Below, in pieces: positions 1-7,094 of a stretch of 64,000 bases of DNA (position 1 is its first letter; each line of letters starts with the position of its first letter). The DNA comes from Bdellovibrio bacteriovorus. Lineage in GTDB: Bacteria; Bdellovibrionota; Bdellovibrionia; Bdellovibrionales; Bdellovibrionaceae. The notes below the pieces were generated by a model. That model saw nothing but the letters and a program-made list of their open reading frames with translations, had not been told where the DNA came from and ran no database searches. The position numbers were made by a program, and so were the translations under genes. The stretch is from NCBI RefSeq assembly GCF_001592755.1, contig NZ_LUKF01000017.1:1-64000 (forward strand), given 5' to 3'.

Positions 1-777
1 GGAACACATCTTAATTCTCCAGATTATATGAATATCGAAAAACAATTTTATAAGATAATCAAAGATCATTTAGGTTCACCTCGATTATTAGTTGACGCTG
101 TCAGTGGTAAGATTCTGCAAATTATGGAATATACCGCATGGGGTAAAATTACAAAGGATACAAACCCTGGTATTCATCCGTTTGGCTTTGCGGGTGGCTT
201 AAGAATTGGAGACGAAGCGACTTTGAAGTTTGGGAGTCGCGAATACGATCCTGAAACTGCAAGATGGATGTCTAGGGATCCAGTTAGCTTTTGGGGAAGC
301 CCGGATAATTTATACATCTACGCAGGTAACGATCCGATCAACCTCGTGGATCCGTTGGGTTTAACTGAAGATCAGATGATCGCCGCTGAAAACTGGTTGC
401 GAGAAAATATGCCTGAGCTATTTAATAAAACCAATCCGAAGATTGAGTATGGCCCCGCTTACAACGAAATGGGTTGGGACGTGTACGGTCAAGCCCCAAG
501 TAAAAATAGGGTTATAATTAATGGTGATTTTATCGACAAAAAGTTTGATAGCGATAAGCGGATGAGTGAGTACGTCATTACGATCGCTCATGAAGTATTG
601 CATACCCACGATTGGTTGCGATGTGAGGGGTGGAGTGCTGAGTTAGCTGACAAACTTATGAAGAAGATTACAACAGAGGCTAGGGAGAATGAAATCGAAG
701 ATTTCGCAAAGCGAGTTGGAAAGGGATATATGCGTAGCCTTAAATACCAGCGAGCTGGGGCATTGCCATTTAATTAG
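1..777 (+). CDS. RHS-repeat core C-terminus with HExxH metallopeptidase-like tip (5' truncated)
   Basis: The reading frame is open from base 1, so the gene begins before the window; 258 codons are visible. Residues ~24-123 are the RHS-associated core: DHLGSPR, a YTAWG segment, FGFAGG, REYDPETARWMSRDP and the boundary signature NDPINLVDPLGL. In RHS/YD-repeat proteins this boundary separates the conserved shell from a variable, usually toxic, C-terminal tip. Here the tip is ~135 residues and contains HEVLHTHDW (H197, E198, H201 counted from base 1) followed by an acidic patch (CEGWSAE), which fits a zinc metallopeptidase. That activity is inferred from the motif only. The stop lies 14 nt before the next gene, suggesting one operon. 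No small immunity-like gene follows; the next three genes are large and exported. Base composition is AT-rich, unlike most of the window. Confidence 0.85.
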   Translation, partial: GTHLNSPDYMNIEKQFYKIIKDHLGSPRLLVDAVSGKILQIMEYTAWGKITKDTNPGIHPFGFAGGLRIGDEATLKFGSREYDPETARWMSRDPVSFWGSPDNLYIYAGNDPINLVDPLGLTEDQMIAAENWLRENMPELFNKTNPKIEYGPAYNEMGWDVYGQAPSKNRVIINGDFIDKKFDSDKRMSEYVITIAHEVLHTHDWLRCEGWSAELADKLMKKITTEARENEIEDFAKRVGKGYMRSLKYQRAGALPFN

Positions 778-791
778 AATAAAAGGAATTT

Positions 792-3029
792 ATGAAAAAT
801 TTATTTAAAAATCTTATTACTGTATTAGTTATTTTAATATCTTTCAGTGCAAATGCTAAAGATATTAAAGAGCTCCAAAAATTTAGTAGAAAGGTAAAGC
901 TAATTCAATCTGCTCAGAGCAAGATCGGTAAAATTAGCTTTTCTAATTCCAATCCTATACAGGGAGATAGGATAACTGCCTTTATTGAGCTTTCTACATC
1001 ATTTAACGGTAATGCCGAAATAAGTCATATTATCGACGCGGAAATAAATGGAAGAAAATTAAAGTCACATAGGAAGACAGACACTCTTTGGGTAACTGAA
1101 CCGTTTGTATTACATAAAATAGGAAGCCACACTTTAACCTCAAAATTGTTTTTAGAAAACAAAACAGAGGCTAATTTAATTCGTACGAGTATTCTTGCTA
1201 AGAGCAAAGATATAGAAAGAGTCGTTGCGAAATTAGCACGGGAGTCCGATCCGGTAAAACGAGCTGCTTTGGAAACGGAGAGAGATGCCTTAGTAACTGA
1301 AAAGGAAGGCCTCGAAAATCTTTTAGATGCTTCTAAAAGAGCGGTTTCGACTTTCGAGGACATAATTTTAGTATCTGAAAACATAAACTCAATCAACTAT
1401 CCCAAAATCAACTTGATTTCACCAAATGTTGTCTCTCTGGTTGGGGGCGAAGAAATTTCAATAACTGGTGTCAATCTTGAAAAGACAGAGCGACTATGGA
1501 TTGGTGGTGTTGAAATTTCTGATAGTGATTTTTCTATAGTTGGAGGCATGATTGTCACGACCGTTCCCACGCTTCAAAAAGAGGGACCTGTAGAAGTTAA
1601 AATTGCCTCCACTTTTGAAGGGCAATCCGTAATATCTGATTTACCTGGGGGATTGTTTGCGAGTAGCGTTCCTGTTGGTGGACCTCAAAACACAATTTAT
1701 CCTGTTGCTTTTGCTGGCACTCCACAAGTTGGGAAATCAGGTGACACAATCACACTTGATGGAAGCAGGTCTTACAGTGCGGATGGAGCTGCGATTTCAT
1801 ATTCTTGGAGTGTGGTCTCAAAGCCTTTGGGATCTACATCCTTAGACGGAGTTTTCGATGATGCAACTCTCGTACATCCACAGTTTATTGCACATACACC
1901 CGGTAATTATACAGTTGCGCTTGAAGTTTCCAATGGTTCAGCCACAAGTATTCCTTCATTAACATTGGTTACGATTGGTCATAAAGCCGAGGCTTATATC
2001 GCTCCAACTGAAATATTCGGGACTGCGATGAAGGACGGTGTTTATATTGGTTCATTCAAAATCTGTAATAACAAAACCGAAGACGTAAACTTTCAAATAT
2101 TTCTCGATAAAAAAGTAACTTTACTGTCAGGATATTCTAGAGGAACTTTACAAAAACAAAAATGCGGAGACTATCAGTTCTCGGTAAAACTACTTGGAGA
2201 CTCCGCTATTTCTATTGATATTCCTGTTTGGATCGGGGGTATTACTAAAATACTTCACCTCCAGGTTTTGGAAGGTGCGACGTCACCTCTGAAACTTGAA
2301 ACTACATTCTTAGATAACTCATGGAGTTCAGAATCTGATCTTGAGGTCCTCAGTTTGAATGGCCATGTCCCGTTATTTGGCTCATTTGATGAGATATCTC
2401 CGACTCAAATCAAGATTTCCAATACATCTAACGTAGATGTGGAGATCTTTGAGCCGCCAACGTTTACCCATCTAAATGGAAGTTCAGGTGTGTTTTCGTC
2501 AAATTACCCAGTCGAAGGATTGATAGTACCAGCTAATGGCAGCGTACTAATAAGCCTGATGGTTCAACCCGGCGTTTTTGCTAATGACGATTCTGCCAGT
2601 GCAATAATGGAGTGGATAGTTGAAGAGAATTCTACACCGAAAGTAGTCTTTTTAAAGACAAGGAAACTTCCAGTTCCATTGGGATATTTAAAGAATGTAG
2701 ACTTAGGAGAAGTAGAAACAGGTGACCCCGTACAAGAATCCTTAGTTGATATCGAAAGGGATTTTTTCGACGGAGTTTTCAATGGCCTCACGTCAGTGCC
2801 TTCAATAACTGTTTTTGATGATGCCGGTGGCGCTTTAACTGTCGACAATTATTCTTATTTACCACACACCTTGTTGGGAAATATCGGTGGTTACAAACTG
2901 CCCTCAGTACAAGTCGGGGTGAACATGTCTTCACAGAATTTTGGGCTATTCTCCGGAAAAGTTGACGTAAAATTAAAAGGATACGCAACGTCGTTCCGAT
3001 ATAATTATCAACTTGAGGTGGCGCCATAA
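792..3029 (+). CDS. Secreted protein with shared N-terminal module, TIG and PKD domains
   Basis: 745 residues; SD AAGGA sits just before the ATG. Residues 1-22 form a Sec signal peptide (hydrophobic stretch ending SANA). Residues ~45-130 look like an Ig-type strand-rich domain. Residues ~145-185 form a charged helical hairpin containing SDPVKRAALETERD, the module shared with the next two genes. Residues ~205-270 match an IPT/TIG domain (ISITGVNLEKTERLWIGG). Residues ~305-395 match a PKD domain (GDTITLDGSRSY, then YSWSV). The last ~350 residues are strand-rich and unrecognised. Its stop overlaps the next start as TAATG, so the two are probably translationally coupled. The likely location is the periplasm or cell surface; the function is unknown. 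It follows the RHS gene closely, so a role as accessory or partner is possible but unproven. Confidence 0.85.
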   Translation: MKNLFKNLITVLVILISFSANAKDIKELQKFSRKVKLIQSAQSKIGKISFSNSNPIQGDRITAFIELSTSFNGNAEISHIIDAEINGRKLKSHRKTDTLWVTEPFVLHKIGSHTLTSKLFLENKTEANLIRTSILAKSKDIERVVAKLARESDPVKRAALETERDALVTEKEGLENLLDASKRAVSTFEDIILVSENINSINYPKINLISPNVVSLVGGEEISITGVNLEKTERLWIGGVEISDSDFSIVGGMIVTTVPTLQKEGPVEVKIASTFEGQSVISDLPGGLFASSVPVGGPQNTIYPVAFAGTPQVGKSGDTITLDGSRSYSADGAAISYSWSVVSKPLGSTSLDGVFDDATLVHPQFIAHTPGNYTVALEVSNGSATSIPSLTLVTIGHKAEAYIAPTEIFGTAMKDGVYIGSFKICNNKTEDVNFQIFLDKKVTLLSGYSRGTLQKQKCGDYQFSVKLLGDSAISIDIPVWIGGITKILHLQVLEGATSPLKLETTFLDNSWSSESDLEVLSLNGHVPLFGSFDEISPTQIKISNTSNVDVEIFEPPTFTHLNGSSGVFSSNYPVEGLIVPANGSVLISLMVQPGVFANDDSASAIMEWIVEENSTPKVVFLKTRKLPVPLGYLKNVDLGEVETGDPVQESLVDIERDFFDGVFNGLTSVPSITVFDDAGGALTVDNYSYLPHTLLGNIGGYKLPSVQVGVNMSSQNFGLFSGKVDVKLKGYATSFRYNYQLEVAP

Positions 3030-5125
3030 TGAAAAAGGTCATTTACATTCTTTCGCTCATTGTTTCTTCGATAGCTTTTGCAGCTCCCGATTTTATTGAA
3101 ATTCGTTCAATAAAAAGTTCGTATCAAATTGGAGATCGCCCGGTATATCTCATCACTCAAATGTTAAAACCCAACGACGTGAATACCGAGGTCTTTATTG
3201 AAGCAAAACTTCAAGGGGTACCAATAAAGGTCGTGAAAATTTCCGAATCTCAATGGGGTGTCGTTTCATCTTCTTTGGCGAATCTTGGTCCTCTAACTTT
3301 CGAAGCTAAAGTTTATCTACAAAACAAAAATAGTGCACTTTCCAAGAAGATTGCGGTTGAGAAGAATCTGCGGGAAGTTGAAGATCTGTTGCAAGCTAAA
3401 AGAAAAGCTAAAGATCCTCAAAGAATCGCGATACTAGAGAGTGCAATTTCTGAAAAGAATCAGGAAAGTGTGCTACTAGAGGAGCAACTGGCAAAAGGTA
3501 GAACGCTGATTGAAACTCAATCTATGGTAATACCTGTTTCCAGTATGCTAAAGAAAAATACCACTCTTGTGAATCCTGCGGCATTAGTGTTTAATGTTAA
3601 CGAACCGTATGTCGAAGGTAGAAATAAATTTTTGTCAGTGTCCGTGAATCAAAATGGCGTGCCGGAAATTGGTTCTTTTAAAACAGAAGTCGTCGTTAAG
3701 ATCGATGGTGTTGAAAAGGTTAAGGGCAGGAATCAGTCTTATGTTTACCTCGATTTTAGCGCGCTACAGAGAGGCACTTATAGCTTCACGGCAGAACTCT
3801 TTCTTCGTGATAAATTTGTTGCAGATATTCTGGAAGAAGCTATTGGAAGTGCTTCAATTACCAGGCTAAATACTTTGCCTCAGCTGAGGAATGAAGCGAT
3901 TTCAAACGACCTGAAGCTCTATTATGATAAAGAAATAGAAGATGTTACTCTGATCTCTCAGGCGCTTGATTCAGTCTTTGAAGACATAAAGATAAATTTT
4001 TATAGTACATCAAAAAGCATTGCGGTTCTTGCTCCGCCTTTAGTTTTTTCCACTCTTGCCGCAAACACAAACCACAGCTGCGGGATAGTGAGCGGAAAGC
4101 TCTATTGTTGGGGTAAGAATGAACATGGCGAGTTAGGAGTAGGAGATAACCTTCCAAGGTTAATACCGACTGAAGTTAACGGTATGTCGAGCGGCGTAAC
4201 GGAAGTTCAAGTTGGTCTTAATCATACCTGTGCAATAAAATCTAACACGCTCTATTGTTGGGGAGATAATACTTTTGGTCAGCTTGGAAACGGATTAAAC
4301 TCGAGTACTTACCTGCCAGTCCAGGTTTCAGGTCTTCCAACTTTATACGGAAGTATTTCTCTGGGCTCTCACCACTCTTGTGTAATTACTTCTGGTGGCA
4401 CTTACTGTTGGGGAAGAAATTCTCACGGTCAACTAGGTATCGGAAGTTTAACTGATTCTAACATTCCAGTTTTAGTTTTAACTCCAAGTTTAGTTACTTG
4501 GGGAGGGCTTACATCAGGAGATAGCTTTACATGCGCGTTTAGACCAGGTGGAGGGCTTGGCGGGCCTGGATTTGCATACTGTTGGGGATCTAATGAGTAT
4601 GGCCAGTTAGGGTTAAGTGGTGGGGGGACTTATTCAACTCCGGTTAATTCAGATGTTGGGACATATAAAGCTAAAGGCGATACTATATGTATTTATAGTT
4701 TACATTGGTCTTGTAGAGGAAATAACTCTTATGGACAATTTGGTTTAGGCCTTACTAATAGTACACACGTTTTTGTCTATATTCCAGGCCCTTATGAAGG
4801 CTATGGCAATCTTGTCCTAGGGAAAAACTCGATTTGTTATACCAATTATTCTCAAGCGTATTGCGCAGGTAAGGGAGTTGATGGAGGCCTGGGTAATAAC
4901 GGAAATAGTAACTCAAGTGTTTTCGTAGCACAGCCATATTATCCTAACAGCATTTCAAGAATGGAAATTGGCGATGGTTACGGTTTAGCACAAGTCACAG
5001 ACGATTATTTAATGAGTTGGGGTGCGAATCGAGGTGGGAATCTAGGGAACGGTACTTCAGACGTTCATAATCTCACGCCTAAACCTGTTAATGCTCCGTT
5101 AACCCTTCATAGTTTTAAATATTGA
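3029..5125 (+). CDS. Secreted RCC1-type propeller protein with shared N-terminal module
   Basis: 698 residues with a signal peptide (~1-18, ending AFA). The N-terminal ~165 residues repeat the architecture of the preceding gene: an Ig-like domain (SSYQIGDRPVYLI) and a helical hairpin (KDPQRIAILESAISEK, then a Leu/Glu-rich second helix). A second strand-rich domain follows (~190-280). From ~345 to the end there are seven RCC1-type repeats of ~45-50 residues. The best keep the pattern HxC, then YCWGxNxxGxLGxG. Each of the first repeats has two Cys, one in the HxC strand and one before WG, so disulfides inside blades are plausible in an oxidising compartment. Repeats 5-7 are degenerate. Seven repeats fit one closed seven-bladed propeller, usually a protein-binding surface. 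It starts on the stop of the upstream gene (TAATG). Confidence 0.85.
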   Translation: MKKVIYILSLIVSSIAFAAPDFIEIRSIKSSYQIGDRPVYLITQMLKPNDVNTEVFIEAKLQGVPIKVVKISESQWGVVSSSLANLGPLTFEAKVYLQNKNSALSKKIAVEKNLREVEDLLQAKRKAKDPQRIAILESAISEKNQESVLLEEQLAKGRTLIETQSMVIPVSSMLKKNTTLVNPAALVFNVNEPYVEGRNKFLSVSVNQNGVPEIGSFKTEVVVKIDGVEKVKGRNQSYVYLDFSALQRGTYSFTAELFLRDKFVADILEEAIGSASITRLNTLPQLRNEAISNDLKLYYDKEIEDVTLISQALDSVFEDIKINFYSTSKSIAVLAPPLVFSTLAANTNHSCGIVSGKLYCWGKNEHGELGVGDNLPRLIPTEVNGMSSGVTEVQVGLNHTCAIKSNTLYCWGDNTFGQLGNGLNSSTYLPVQVSGLPTLYGSISLGSHHSCVITSGGTYCWGRNSHGQLGIGSLTDSNIPVLVLTPSLVTWGGLTSGDSFTCAFRPGGGLGGPGFAYCWGSNEYGQLGLSGGGTYSTPVNSDVGTYKAKGDTICIYSLHWSCRGNNSYGQFGLGLTNSTHVFVYIPGPYEGYGNLVLGKNSICYTNYSQAYCAGKGVDGGLGNNGNSNSSVFVAQPYYPNSISRMEIGDGYGLAQVTDDYLMSWGANRGGNLGNGTSDVHNLTPKPVNAPLTLHSFKY

Positions 5126-5134
5126 GGTATATCT

Positions 5135-6142
5135 ATGTTGTCACGAATTCTATTTATATTTTTTTTGGCAAGTGGCGCCAAAGCCCAATACGTTAGCTTA
5201 TCAACTGATAAGACCACATATCAACCGGAAGAAAAGATGGTCGTAGTGGCATACCAAAAGTCTGCGCTTCCCTCCGGTCAAGAGCTTACGGTTGAATTGA
5301 GTTCAAATAGCGTCGAGATGCGCGCCATTCGAATAGGTAGCAAGTTGTTTGCGGGTACTGTAAACGCGCCTTCTGTTGCTTCAAACTATATTGTTAAAGC
5401 TTTCGTTTATTCTCAAGATATAGCTTTAGCGAATGCCGTTAGATCTGAAATCGGGGCTATGCTAAATAAGATTCTGCAAGCTCAACTTCTATTGAGGTCT
5501 GAAACTTCACCCGACAAAATTATCCTTCTTGAGGATAGCATCAACGAATTAAGAAGTTTGATTGTAGCAAAAGAATCTGAGCTTAAGCAGAGTAGAACGC
5601 TTTTGGAAGAAGTTAGCCTCAATATCAGTGTGCTCGCGAGTAACGTGAAGCCGAGTGCAACGCCTAAATTTTCCGACCCAATCGACGTATCGTTCGATAA
5701 CGGAACCGGACAATACCAAGTTGGGGATTCTGCCACAATCAGTGCTTTGATTCATCCTGATATAATCAGTCCATCCAATACTTATTCGTATGACCTTTAT
5801 ACGGATCTAGATGGAATTGCCGTACCGAATTCAAAAGATAGCGAGTTTATCTTTAATGTGCCGATTTCTTCGTCCATGTTGACTTTGGGTAACCATCAGC
5901 TTCGTTTAAAGATCGTCGGAATGGCAATGGATAAAGAAGAACTGTTTTCAACTATCATAGGGGATGCTTTGTCGTACAAGACCGAACTCACTCAGATGAT
6001 TGATAATAGTTCAGGAGCATCAAAAGTCTTCTATGAAATGGAGCTAGGTGAACTTCAGCTGATTATCGACGTTATATTTGATATATACAATTCGAACAAA
6101 GTGATTTTGTACGAAGAAAGCGTTTTGATTACTGTTTCCTGA
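5135..6142 (+). CDS. Secreted protein, third paralogue of the shared N-terminal module
   Basis: 335 residues; SD GAGG overlaps the previous stop codon and lies 7 nt before the ATG. It has a signal peptide of ~17 residues (ending GAKA). Residues ~18-110 form an Ig-like domain opening STDKTTYQPEEKMVVVAY. Residues ~110-165 form the helical hairpin with SPDKIILLEDSINELR and KQSRTLLEEV, clearly the same module as in the two preceding genes. The remaining ~165 residues look like another strand-rich domain (YQVGDSATISALIHP). Unlike its two neighbours it carries no extra TIG, PKD or RCC1 unit, so it may be the minimal member of the set. Function unknown. It is the last gene of the apparent RHS-led operon. 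Confidence 0.8.
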   Translation: MLSRILFIFFLASGAKAQYVSLSTDKTTYQPEEKMVVVAYQKSALPSGQELTVELSSNSVEMRAIRIGSKLFAGTVNAPSVASNYIVKAFVYSQDIALANAVRSEIGAMLNKILQAQLLLRSETSPDKIILLEDSINELRSLIVAKESELKQSRTLLEEVSLNISVLASNVKPSATPKFSDPIDVSFDNGTGQYQVGDSATISALIHPDIISPSNTYSYDLYTDLDGIAVPNSKDSEFIFNVPISSSMLTLGNHQLRLKIVGMAMDKEELFSTIIGDALSYKTELTQMIDNSSGASKVFYEMELGELQLIIDVIFDIYNSNKVILYEESVLITVS

Positions 6143-6488: not shown

Positions 6489-6508
6489 TTATGGTTTTTT
6501 GAAGCTTC
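6456..6508. repeat. Inverted repeat at the 3' end of tag
   Basis: GAAGCTTCAAAA at 6456-6467 is matched by its exact reverse complement TTTTGAAGCTTC at 6497-6508, with a ~29-nt spacer. It overlaps the last codons of tag on the minus strand. It may act as an intrinsic terminator or RNA-stabilising stem between convergent genes; the long spacer makes it weak. Confidence 0.4.
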
Positions 6509-7094
6509 GCCTTTTTGTTTCTACCTTAGACCTAATAACACACCCAACTGCATGATCATTGATAAGCCCCATCGCCTGCATGAAGGCATACACTGTTGTT
6601 GGGCCGACAAATTTCCAGCCTTGTTTCTTTAAGGCTTTTGAGAGCGCTACTGAAGCTGCCGACGTTGAAGCGGTTTGAGGTGTTACAAGATCCTTCTTGT
6701 CTGGCTCAAAACTCCAAATATAAGCGGCTAGGGAGCCGTGACTTTGGACGATTTCTTGAGCCATCTTAGCATTGTTGATGACGGCTTCTATTTTTCCTTT
6801 GTGGCGGATAATGCCTTCATCTTTAAGTAATCGAGTGACATCTTTCTGCGTGAATTTTGCGATTTTGTTAAAATCAAAGTTATGAAATGCCTTACGGAAG
6901 TTTTCCCGTTTAGCCAGTATTGTGCGCCAACTAAGACCTGACTGGAAGCCTTCAAGGCACAGCTTTTCGAAGAGGCGATAGTCATCGCGAACGGGGAAGC
7001 CCCATTCTTCATCATGGTATTTCAAAAATTCGGGAGCTGAGGCACTCCATGTACAGCGTTTCTTGCCATCGGTCGAAATTACGGTCTTGCTCAT
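6489..7094 (-). CDS. tag: DNA-3-methyladenine glycosylase I
   Basis: 201 residues, close to the usual ~190. It removes 3-methyladenine from alkylated DNA in base excision repair, in the cytoplasm. Family signatures run along the protein: RCTW near residue 14, YHDEEWG, EGFQSGLSW, then LIRHKGKI-like text (GIIRHKGKIEAVINNA), LSKALKKQGWKFVGPTT, and FMQAMGLINDHAVGC. The Cys and His residues in RCTW, YHDEEWG and NDHAVGC correspond to the structural zinc site of E. coli Tag. The C-terminal tail (ETKRRSFKKP) extends a little past the usual end. It appears monocistronic, with a ~50-nt gap to the YCII gene upstream. Confidence 0.95.
   Translation of the reverse strand: MSKTVISTDGKKRCTWSASAPEFLKYHDEEWGFPVRDDYRLFEKLCLEGFQSGLSWRTILAKRENFRKAFHNFDFNKIAKFTQKDVTRLLKDEGIIRHKGKIEAVINNAKMAQEIVQSHGSLAAYIWSFEPDKKDLVTPQTASTSAASVALSKALKKQGWKFVGPTTVYAFMQAMGLINDHAVGCVIRSKVETKRRSFKKP

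What the first reader, a model, noticed from the sequence alone, without database searches (positions are those of the whole stretch)
1..6142. RHS-metallopeptidase operon with three exported paralogues: candidate new system
An RHS shell end with an HExxH tip is followed at 14, -1 and 9 nt by three exported proteins. No immunity-sized gene is present. The tight spacing and AT-rich composition make the four genes one acquired unit. The three exported proteins could be carriers, receptors or surface guides for the RHS product, a combination I do not recognise.
Basis: partly seen in the sequence, partly recalled or inferred. Interest (0 to 1): 0.72.

Follow-up and report, generated by a model that had tools for sequence, protein, structure and literature searches.

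The report
Rhs toxin cluster with Ig-hairpin partners
In the predatory bacterium Bdellovibrio, an exported Rhs-type toxin gene travels with three exported partner proteins built on one undescribed "Ig-sandwich plus helical hairpin" module, and the same set recurs with different toxin tips in related predators, so it looks like a modular surface toxin complex.

Summary
An Rhs 3' end with an HExxH tip (1-777) is followed at 14, -1 and 9 nt by three exported proteins, B (792-3029), C (3029-5125) and D (5135-6142). The window starts at a contig edge: the Rhs N-terminal part, with its own signal peptide, lies on contig C13, so the gene is not truncated. B, C and D carry one, two and two copies of one ~150-aa module. 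AlphaFold models of B and C show an Ig-like sandwich prolonged into a long helical hairpin; Pfam has no match. B adds TIG/PKD/Ig domains and C a seven-bladed RCC1 propeller.

The set occurs in 7 of 24 Bdellovibrio genomes; at 7 of 8 loci an Rhs gene lies within 10 kb (chance about 2e-9 over six chromosomal loci). Tips and the small genes behind them differ at every locus, as in polymorphic toxins. In a distant Bdellovibrionota genome the module is fused to Rhs; where Rhs is missing, a module protein carries a possible M15-peptidase tip.

Best reading: a polymorphic exported Rhs toxin with co-assembling surface partners, on an acquired island. Assembly, prey contact and toxicity are inferred. 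It is a new variant of a known kind.

The parts
1..777 (+). 3' part of an Rhs/YD-repeat gene (258 codons here; the rest, with signal peptide, is on contig C13:2-3262 minus strand)
   Evidence: TIGR03696 E 1.8e-17; 112-nt identical contig overlap
367..774 (+). Variable C-terminal tip after the DPLGL end of the Rhs core; predicted zincin-like metallopeptidase (HExxH at 589-603)
   Evidence: sequence; no Pfam family; one relative in the phylum, G043, 34% identity, keeping HExxH
792..3029 (+). Gene B, 745 aa, exported: Ig-hairpin module, TIG, PKD, then further Ig/ASH-like domains (stalk-like)
915..1376 (+). Ig-hairpin module of B (aa 42-195)
   Evidence: E 5.6e-41
1401..1943 (+). TIG (aa 204-271) and PKD (aa 304-384) domains of B
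3029..5125 (+). Gene C, 698 aa, exported: two Ig-hairpin modules plus a seven-bladed RCC1 propeller; 12 Cys, all in the propeller, in closely spaced pairs
   Evidence: (Z 49.7 to UVR8, rmsd 1.9, 348 aligned)
3086..3541 (+). Ig-hairpin module 1 of C (aa 20-171)
   Evidence: E 4e-46
3593..4030 (+). Ig-hairpin module 2 of C (aa 189-334)
   Evidence: E 4e-31
4046..5098 (+). RCC1 propeller of C
5135..6142 (+). Gene D, 335 aa, exported: two Ig-hairpin modules only (relatives add about 225 residues at the C-terminus)
6489..7094 (-). Flanking core gene (DNA-3-methyladenine glycosylase I-like, named by eye); synteny with relative G006 starts here
   Evidence: 87% DNA identity begins at 6490; 93% protein identity

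Best explanation
The locus encodes a polymorphic, Sec-exported Rhs/YD-repeat toxin together with a conserved set of exported partner proteins. The Rhs shell encloses a C-terminal tip, here a predicted zinc peptidase, and probably cuts it free at the DPLG site. B, C and D share an Ig-sandwich module that carries a long helical hairpin. I infer that these hairpins pack together and build a hetero-oligomeric complex in the envelope or on the surface, in which B is a stalk, the RCC1 propeller of C is a binding head and D is a connector, and which displays or delivers the Rhs protein to prey or competitors. Shown: the gene set, the shared module, its recurrent linkage to Rhs and one natural fusion to Rhs, and exchange of tips and small downstream genes between loci. 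Inferred: assembly, surface position, target, peptidase activity and toxicity.
For: Five homologous modules in B, C and D, predicted in B and C as an Ig sandwich with a two-helix hairpin. Linkage: the module set occurs in 7 of 24 Bdellovibrio genomes; an Rhs core lies within 10 kb at 7 of 8 loci, and at 5 of 6 chromosomal loci against about 0.08 expected (P 1.7e-9). Conserved order Rhs - [small gene] - B - C (- D) in the window, L048, L050, L051 and L054, with overlaps of 1-4 nt or short gaps between B, C and D. Fusion: in G184 (L090, L091) a giant Rhs protein carries the module at its own N-terminus (E 2e-18 and 7e-19) downstream of B-like and D-like genes. Replacement: in G022 (L053) a 1053-aa module protein (E 9e-10) stands where Rhs would be, with an M15-like C-terminus (Pfam E 0.14, plus SGWR...SGHQTGNSIDL...HVHI; a lead only) and an exported 166-aa gene behind it. 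Polymorphism: the tips share no detectable similarity and neither do the small genes; one tip is YkuD-like (E 0.006). Export: signal peptides on Rhs, B, C and D; twelve paired cysteines in the propeller.
Against: No binding, localisation or activity data. In Bdellovibrio the Rhs proteins themselves lack the module, so how they join the partners is unknown. G354 has module clusters with no Rhs in the stretch read, so the module set is not used for Rhs alone. The window's tip has no immunity gene next to it. No outer-membrane translocator was identified in the cluster.
Confidence: 0.5

Rival explanations
1. B, C and D form a surface adhesin or fibre of their own; the Rhs gene is a separate toxin that happens to insert in the same surface-gene island.
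For: TIG, PKD, Ig and RCC1 domains are typical of bacterial surface proteins; some module clusters (G354, G303) show no Rhs core in the stretch read; at one G009 locus (L049) the Rhs gene is divergent from B and D; Rhs genes also occur without the set in other Bdellovibrio genomes.
Against: Rhs is adjacent at 7 of 8 genus loci, in conserved order with tight gaps at five of them, and the module is fused to Rhs in G184.
Confidence: 0.3
2. B, C or D act as immunity or inhibitor proteins: the RCC1 propeller of C caps the peptidase tip as BLIP-II caps beta-lactamase.
For: C is similar in fold to BLIP-II, an RCC1-like inhibitor (Z about 25); the window lacks any other immunity-sized gene.
Against: C is kept next to quite different tips (YkuD-like, unknown, HExxH), while the small genes change with the tip; UVR8 and RCC1 are closer in fold than BLIP-II.
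Confidence: 0.08
3. The tip is a processing peptidase or a dead end, and the cluster has a structural or social role (display without killing), like metazoan teneurins.
For: No adjacent immunity gene; the third zinc ligand was not established.
Against: Relatives pair changing tips with changing small genes, the mark of polymorphic toxins; the G043 relative of this tip is followed by a membrane protein of immunity size.
Confidence: 0.12

Closest known systems
Bacterial teneurin-like proteins (TLPs; Nat Commun 2026, PMC13018210)
   Same: Exported Rhs/YD-shell proteins with variable C-terminal toxins and DPxG self-cleavage, seen in predatory or social bacteria; the strongest PDB match of the Rhs end is a teneurin-like protein (E 2e-19).
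   Different: TLPs are single chains with FN-plug, NHL propeller and shell in one protein, and almost all have an immunity gene. The search of the window's Rhs parts found no NHL domain, and propeller and Ig parts are separate genes. The paper's text has no mention of Bdellovibrio.
Tox-MPTase tips of Rhs polymorphic toxins (Zhang et al. 2012, PMC3482391)
   Same: HExxH metallopeptidase at the end of an Rhs protein, with no immunity family recorded.
   Different: This tip matches no Pfam model; membership of Tox-MPTase1-5 could not be assigned.
Tc/ABC insecticidal toxins (TcB-TcC cocoon with propeller)
   Same: Rhs cocoon with a C-terminal toxin, in a multi-protein complex that uses a beta-propeller (from general knowledge; weak PDB hits to TcdB2-TccC3).
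   Different: No TcA-like gene among the ORFs read, a different (RCC1) propeller on a separate protein, and Sec signals. Works-like comparison only.
RCC1-repeat proteins (UVR8, RCC1, HERC, BLIP-II)
   Same: Seven-bladed propeller in C (Z 49.7 to UVR8).
   Different: Exported, with cysteine pairs, and joined to Ig-hairpin modules. An earlier Bdellovibrio paper noted an RCC1 protein annotated as 'RTX toxin' (PMC5941755).

Membership tests
Rhs/YD-repeat polymorphic toxin | YD repeats plus Rhs-associated core ending in DPxG | tested here: met
   TIGR03696 E 1.8e-17; RHS_repeat E 2.5e-12 on the C13 part; DPLGL at residues 117-121
Rhs/YD-repeat polymorphic toxin | Tip exchanged between otherwise similar proteins | tested here: met
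   shells about 29-39% identical over 900 residues or more in pairwise comparison, tips without cross-hits
Rhs/YD-repeat polymorphic toxin | Cognate immunity gene directly downstream | tested here: not met
   window: B starts 14 nt after the tip. Small genes are present in the related loci. Zhang 2012 lists no immunity for HExxH tips, so the feature is not universal
Rhs/YD-repeat polymorphic toxin | Tip toxic on delivery | not testable with these tools
   needs expression experiments
Bacterial teneurin-like protein (TLP) | FN-plug, NHL propeller and YD-shell in one chain | tested here: inconclusive
   TEN_YD-shell matches below the cut-off (26 and 48 against 50 bits), no TEN_NHL match in either piece; the two pieces were searched apart
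Tox-MPTase / zincin tip | HExxH in a zincin fold | tested here: inconclusive
   HEVLH present and kept in G043 as HELMH; no family or PDB match; tip not folded
RCC1-like propeller | RCC1 repeats forming a seven-bladed propeller | tested here: met
   PF00415 E 1.3e-41; Z 49.7, rmsd 1.9, 348 aligned to 4dnv
Tc/ABC toxin | TcA pore and TcB-type SpvB/propeller subunits | not tested
   no dedicated search was made; no such gene was noticed among the cluster ORFs

The most novel reading that the evidence does not exclude
The Ig-sandwich with helical hairpin is an undescribed assembly domain. Sets of three to six exported proteins built on it form multi-subunit surface machines in Bdellovibrionota that load interchangeable effectors: Rhs toxins, or in some genomes module-borne peptidases. 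That would be a delivery platform separate from T6SS, Tc and single-chain teneurin-like toxins.
Probability: 0.3. Interest if true: 0.8.

Novelty: new variant of a known kind. Interest (0 to 1): 0.58.

Why it matters
Exported Rhs and teneurin-like toxins of Gram-negative bacteria have no known delivery machinery; the 2026 TLP paper states this openly (PMC13018210). A conserved partner set, with a module fused to Rhs in one lineage, gives concrete candidates to test, in predators whose prey-contact machinery is of wide interest. It also defines an exported domain with no Pfam match.

Tried and rejected
Truncated or degraded Rhs gene: rejected, the break is a contig edge. The two contigs were read apart and not joined. 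Phage or plasmid origin: no phage match to D and only PKD-domain matches to B on plasmids. Module as a coiled-coil artefact: rejected, the profile spans the Ig part, AlphaFold predicts both, and 117 control ORFs gave no hit below E 1 outside B, C and D; two weak matches elsewhere (G000:C17:72674, G006, E 2e-5) cover mostly the helical part and were set aside. Known fold for the module: profile search of the PDB found only coiled-coil noise; the structure searches were filled by the RCC1 domain, so a known fold is not excluded. Promoters and terminators: no more than in shuffled sequence, so uninformative. Scan of viral contigs with the module alignment: not possible, too little conservation. 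The named-genome scan with B returned mostly PKD-domain matches and one true relative, B. bacteriovorus strain kdesi. Tree of C and D modules: shallow nodes weakly supported, so orthology of C and D across loci is only partly resolved.

Full report
What is there. The window is the first 64 kb of contig C17 of a Bdellovibrio genome (the genus is named by its relative G010, whose chromosome length matches B. bacteriovorus strain kdesi, NZ_CP102930.1). The first 258 codons are the end of an Rhs/YD-repeat protein (TIGR03696 E 1.8e-17) followed by a 137-residue tip with HEVLH at 589-603. Gene B follows after 14 nt, C overlaps B by 1 nt, and D follows after 9 nt. The Rhs gene is cut only by the assembly: the first 112 nt of the window are identical to the end of contig C13, which carries at least 1087 more residues, a signal peptide and the remaining repeats. 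I read the two pieces separately.

The three exported proteins. C is related to both B and D by BLASTP; B and D show no direct BLASTP similarity but share the module by profile. Profile comparison shows one repeated module of about 150 residues: once in B, twice in C, twice in D (module 1 against 2, probability 98%, E 5e-14; B against module 1, probability 99%, E 1e-18). AlphaFold2 gives the same topology in C (pLDDT 82) and B (pLDDT 72): an Ig-like sandwich whose strand pair is prolonged by two helices of about 27 residues (C: 100-126 and 130-156; B: 124-150 and 154-180). No Pfam family covers it. After it, B has TIG and PKD and further Ig-like domains; C has a seven-bladed RCC1 propeller (Z 49.7 to UVR8) with twelve cysteines in closely spaced pairs, which fits an oxidising, exported location.

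Does the set go with Rhs? Across 144 genomes of the class the two-module profile was found in 7 genomes, all of this genus, while Rhs cores are in 61. The first search gave eight loci in seven genomes. In the window, L048, L050, L051 and L054 the order is Rhs, usually a small gene, then B and C, with D in three of them. In L049 the Rhs gene is divergent from B and a D-like gene. In L052 the order is C, C', short B, D, a further 832-aa exported protein (module match weak, E 3e-4), then Rhs. Only L053 has no Rhs. For the six loci on complete chromosomes, five have an Rhs core within 10 kb; chance gives P 1.7e-9. Rhs genes do occur without the set, but in this genus the set hardly occurs without Rhs.

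Wider evidence. In phylum-level searches clear sets appear in three further genomes. In G184, two clusters hold a lectin-like protein (Laminin_G_3 in the L090 copy), a B-like gene, a D-like gene and a giant Rhs protein that itself carries the module near its N-terminus (E 2e-18 and 7e-19), followed by PKD, carboxypeptidase-regulatory and Rhs repeats. This natural fusion is the best single argument for a working link. In the one Bdellovibrio locus without Rhs (L053), a 1053-aa protein carries the module (E 9e-10), and its C-terminus shows an M15-like pattern (Pfam E 0.14, a lead only), with an exported 166-aa gene behind it. In G303 and G354 the module is joined to PKD, LamG or DUF7453 domains, without an Rhs core in the stretches read.

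Toxin character. Rhs shells in these clusters are about 29-39% identical over 900 residues or more, while the tips have no detectable similarity to each other, nor do the small genes that follow them. One tip is YkuD-like (E 0.006). Several small genes encode membrane or exported proteins, as expected for immunity against envelope-acting toxins (inference). In the window no such gene is present. HExxH tips on Rhs proteins without recorded immunity are described (PMC3482391). The only relative of this tip found in 369 genomes is in G043, where a 124-aa membrane protein follows.

Acquired unit. DNA identity with the nearest relative G006 (87%) begins abruptly at window 6490, at the end of tagI. 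The other flank of G006, XerC-like and ComM-like genes (named by eye) and tRNA-Cys, lies at the very start of contig C18 in this genome. The cluster therefore sits in a variable site between tRNA-Cys and tagI, where G006 has other genes. GC is 0.38-0.42 against 0.458 +/- 0.018. The site supports horizontal acquisition, although the left end was not assembled.

Mechanism. Export, a shared module in three partners and linkage to a changing effector are shown or strongly supported. That the hairpins make a hetero-oligomer, that it is on the surface, and that it displays or delivers the tip to prey or competitors is inference. Rivals are an independent adhesin that shares the island, a BLIP-II-like inhibitor role for C, and a non-toxic structural role.

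Place among known things. The Rhs protein belongs to the exported Rhs/YD polymorphic toxins, near the teneurin-like proteins (PMC13018210), whose delivery is unexplained. What is not described, as far as the library searched shows, is the Ig-hairpin module and its multi-gene sets. I file it as a new variant of a known kind.

Noticed in passing
L011:8261-12709 (own genome, C2): A second exported Rhs gene with a different tip, followed at 13 nt by a 147-aa membrane-anchored gene of immunity type, without B, C or D partners.
   Followed up: partly
L048:14537-15741 (G009): Two transposase-like ORFs (judged by eye) interrupt an Rhs gene of a related cluster just before its tip; the downstream B-C-D genes are intact.
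   Followed up: no
L110:62-135 and L107:12316-12389: tRNA-Cys flanks the variable site that holds the cluster; a possible integration site.
   Followed up: partly
L089:22-7908 and L088 (G354): Runs of up to five successive module proteins on a contig, one set beside a transglutaminase-domain protein; possibly another effector type.
   Followed up: no
L093 and L087 (G303): Proteins of about 1240 aa with the module at the C-terminus, one with a DUF7453 match, in similar copies on several contigs.
   Followed up: no
L010:3376-4095: Exported 239-aa protein divergent from the Rhs gene, no family above cut-off.
   Followed up: no
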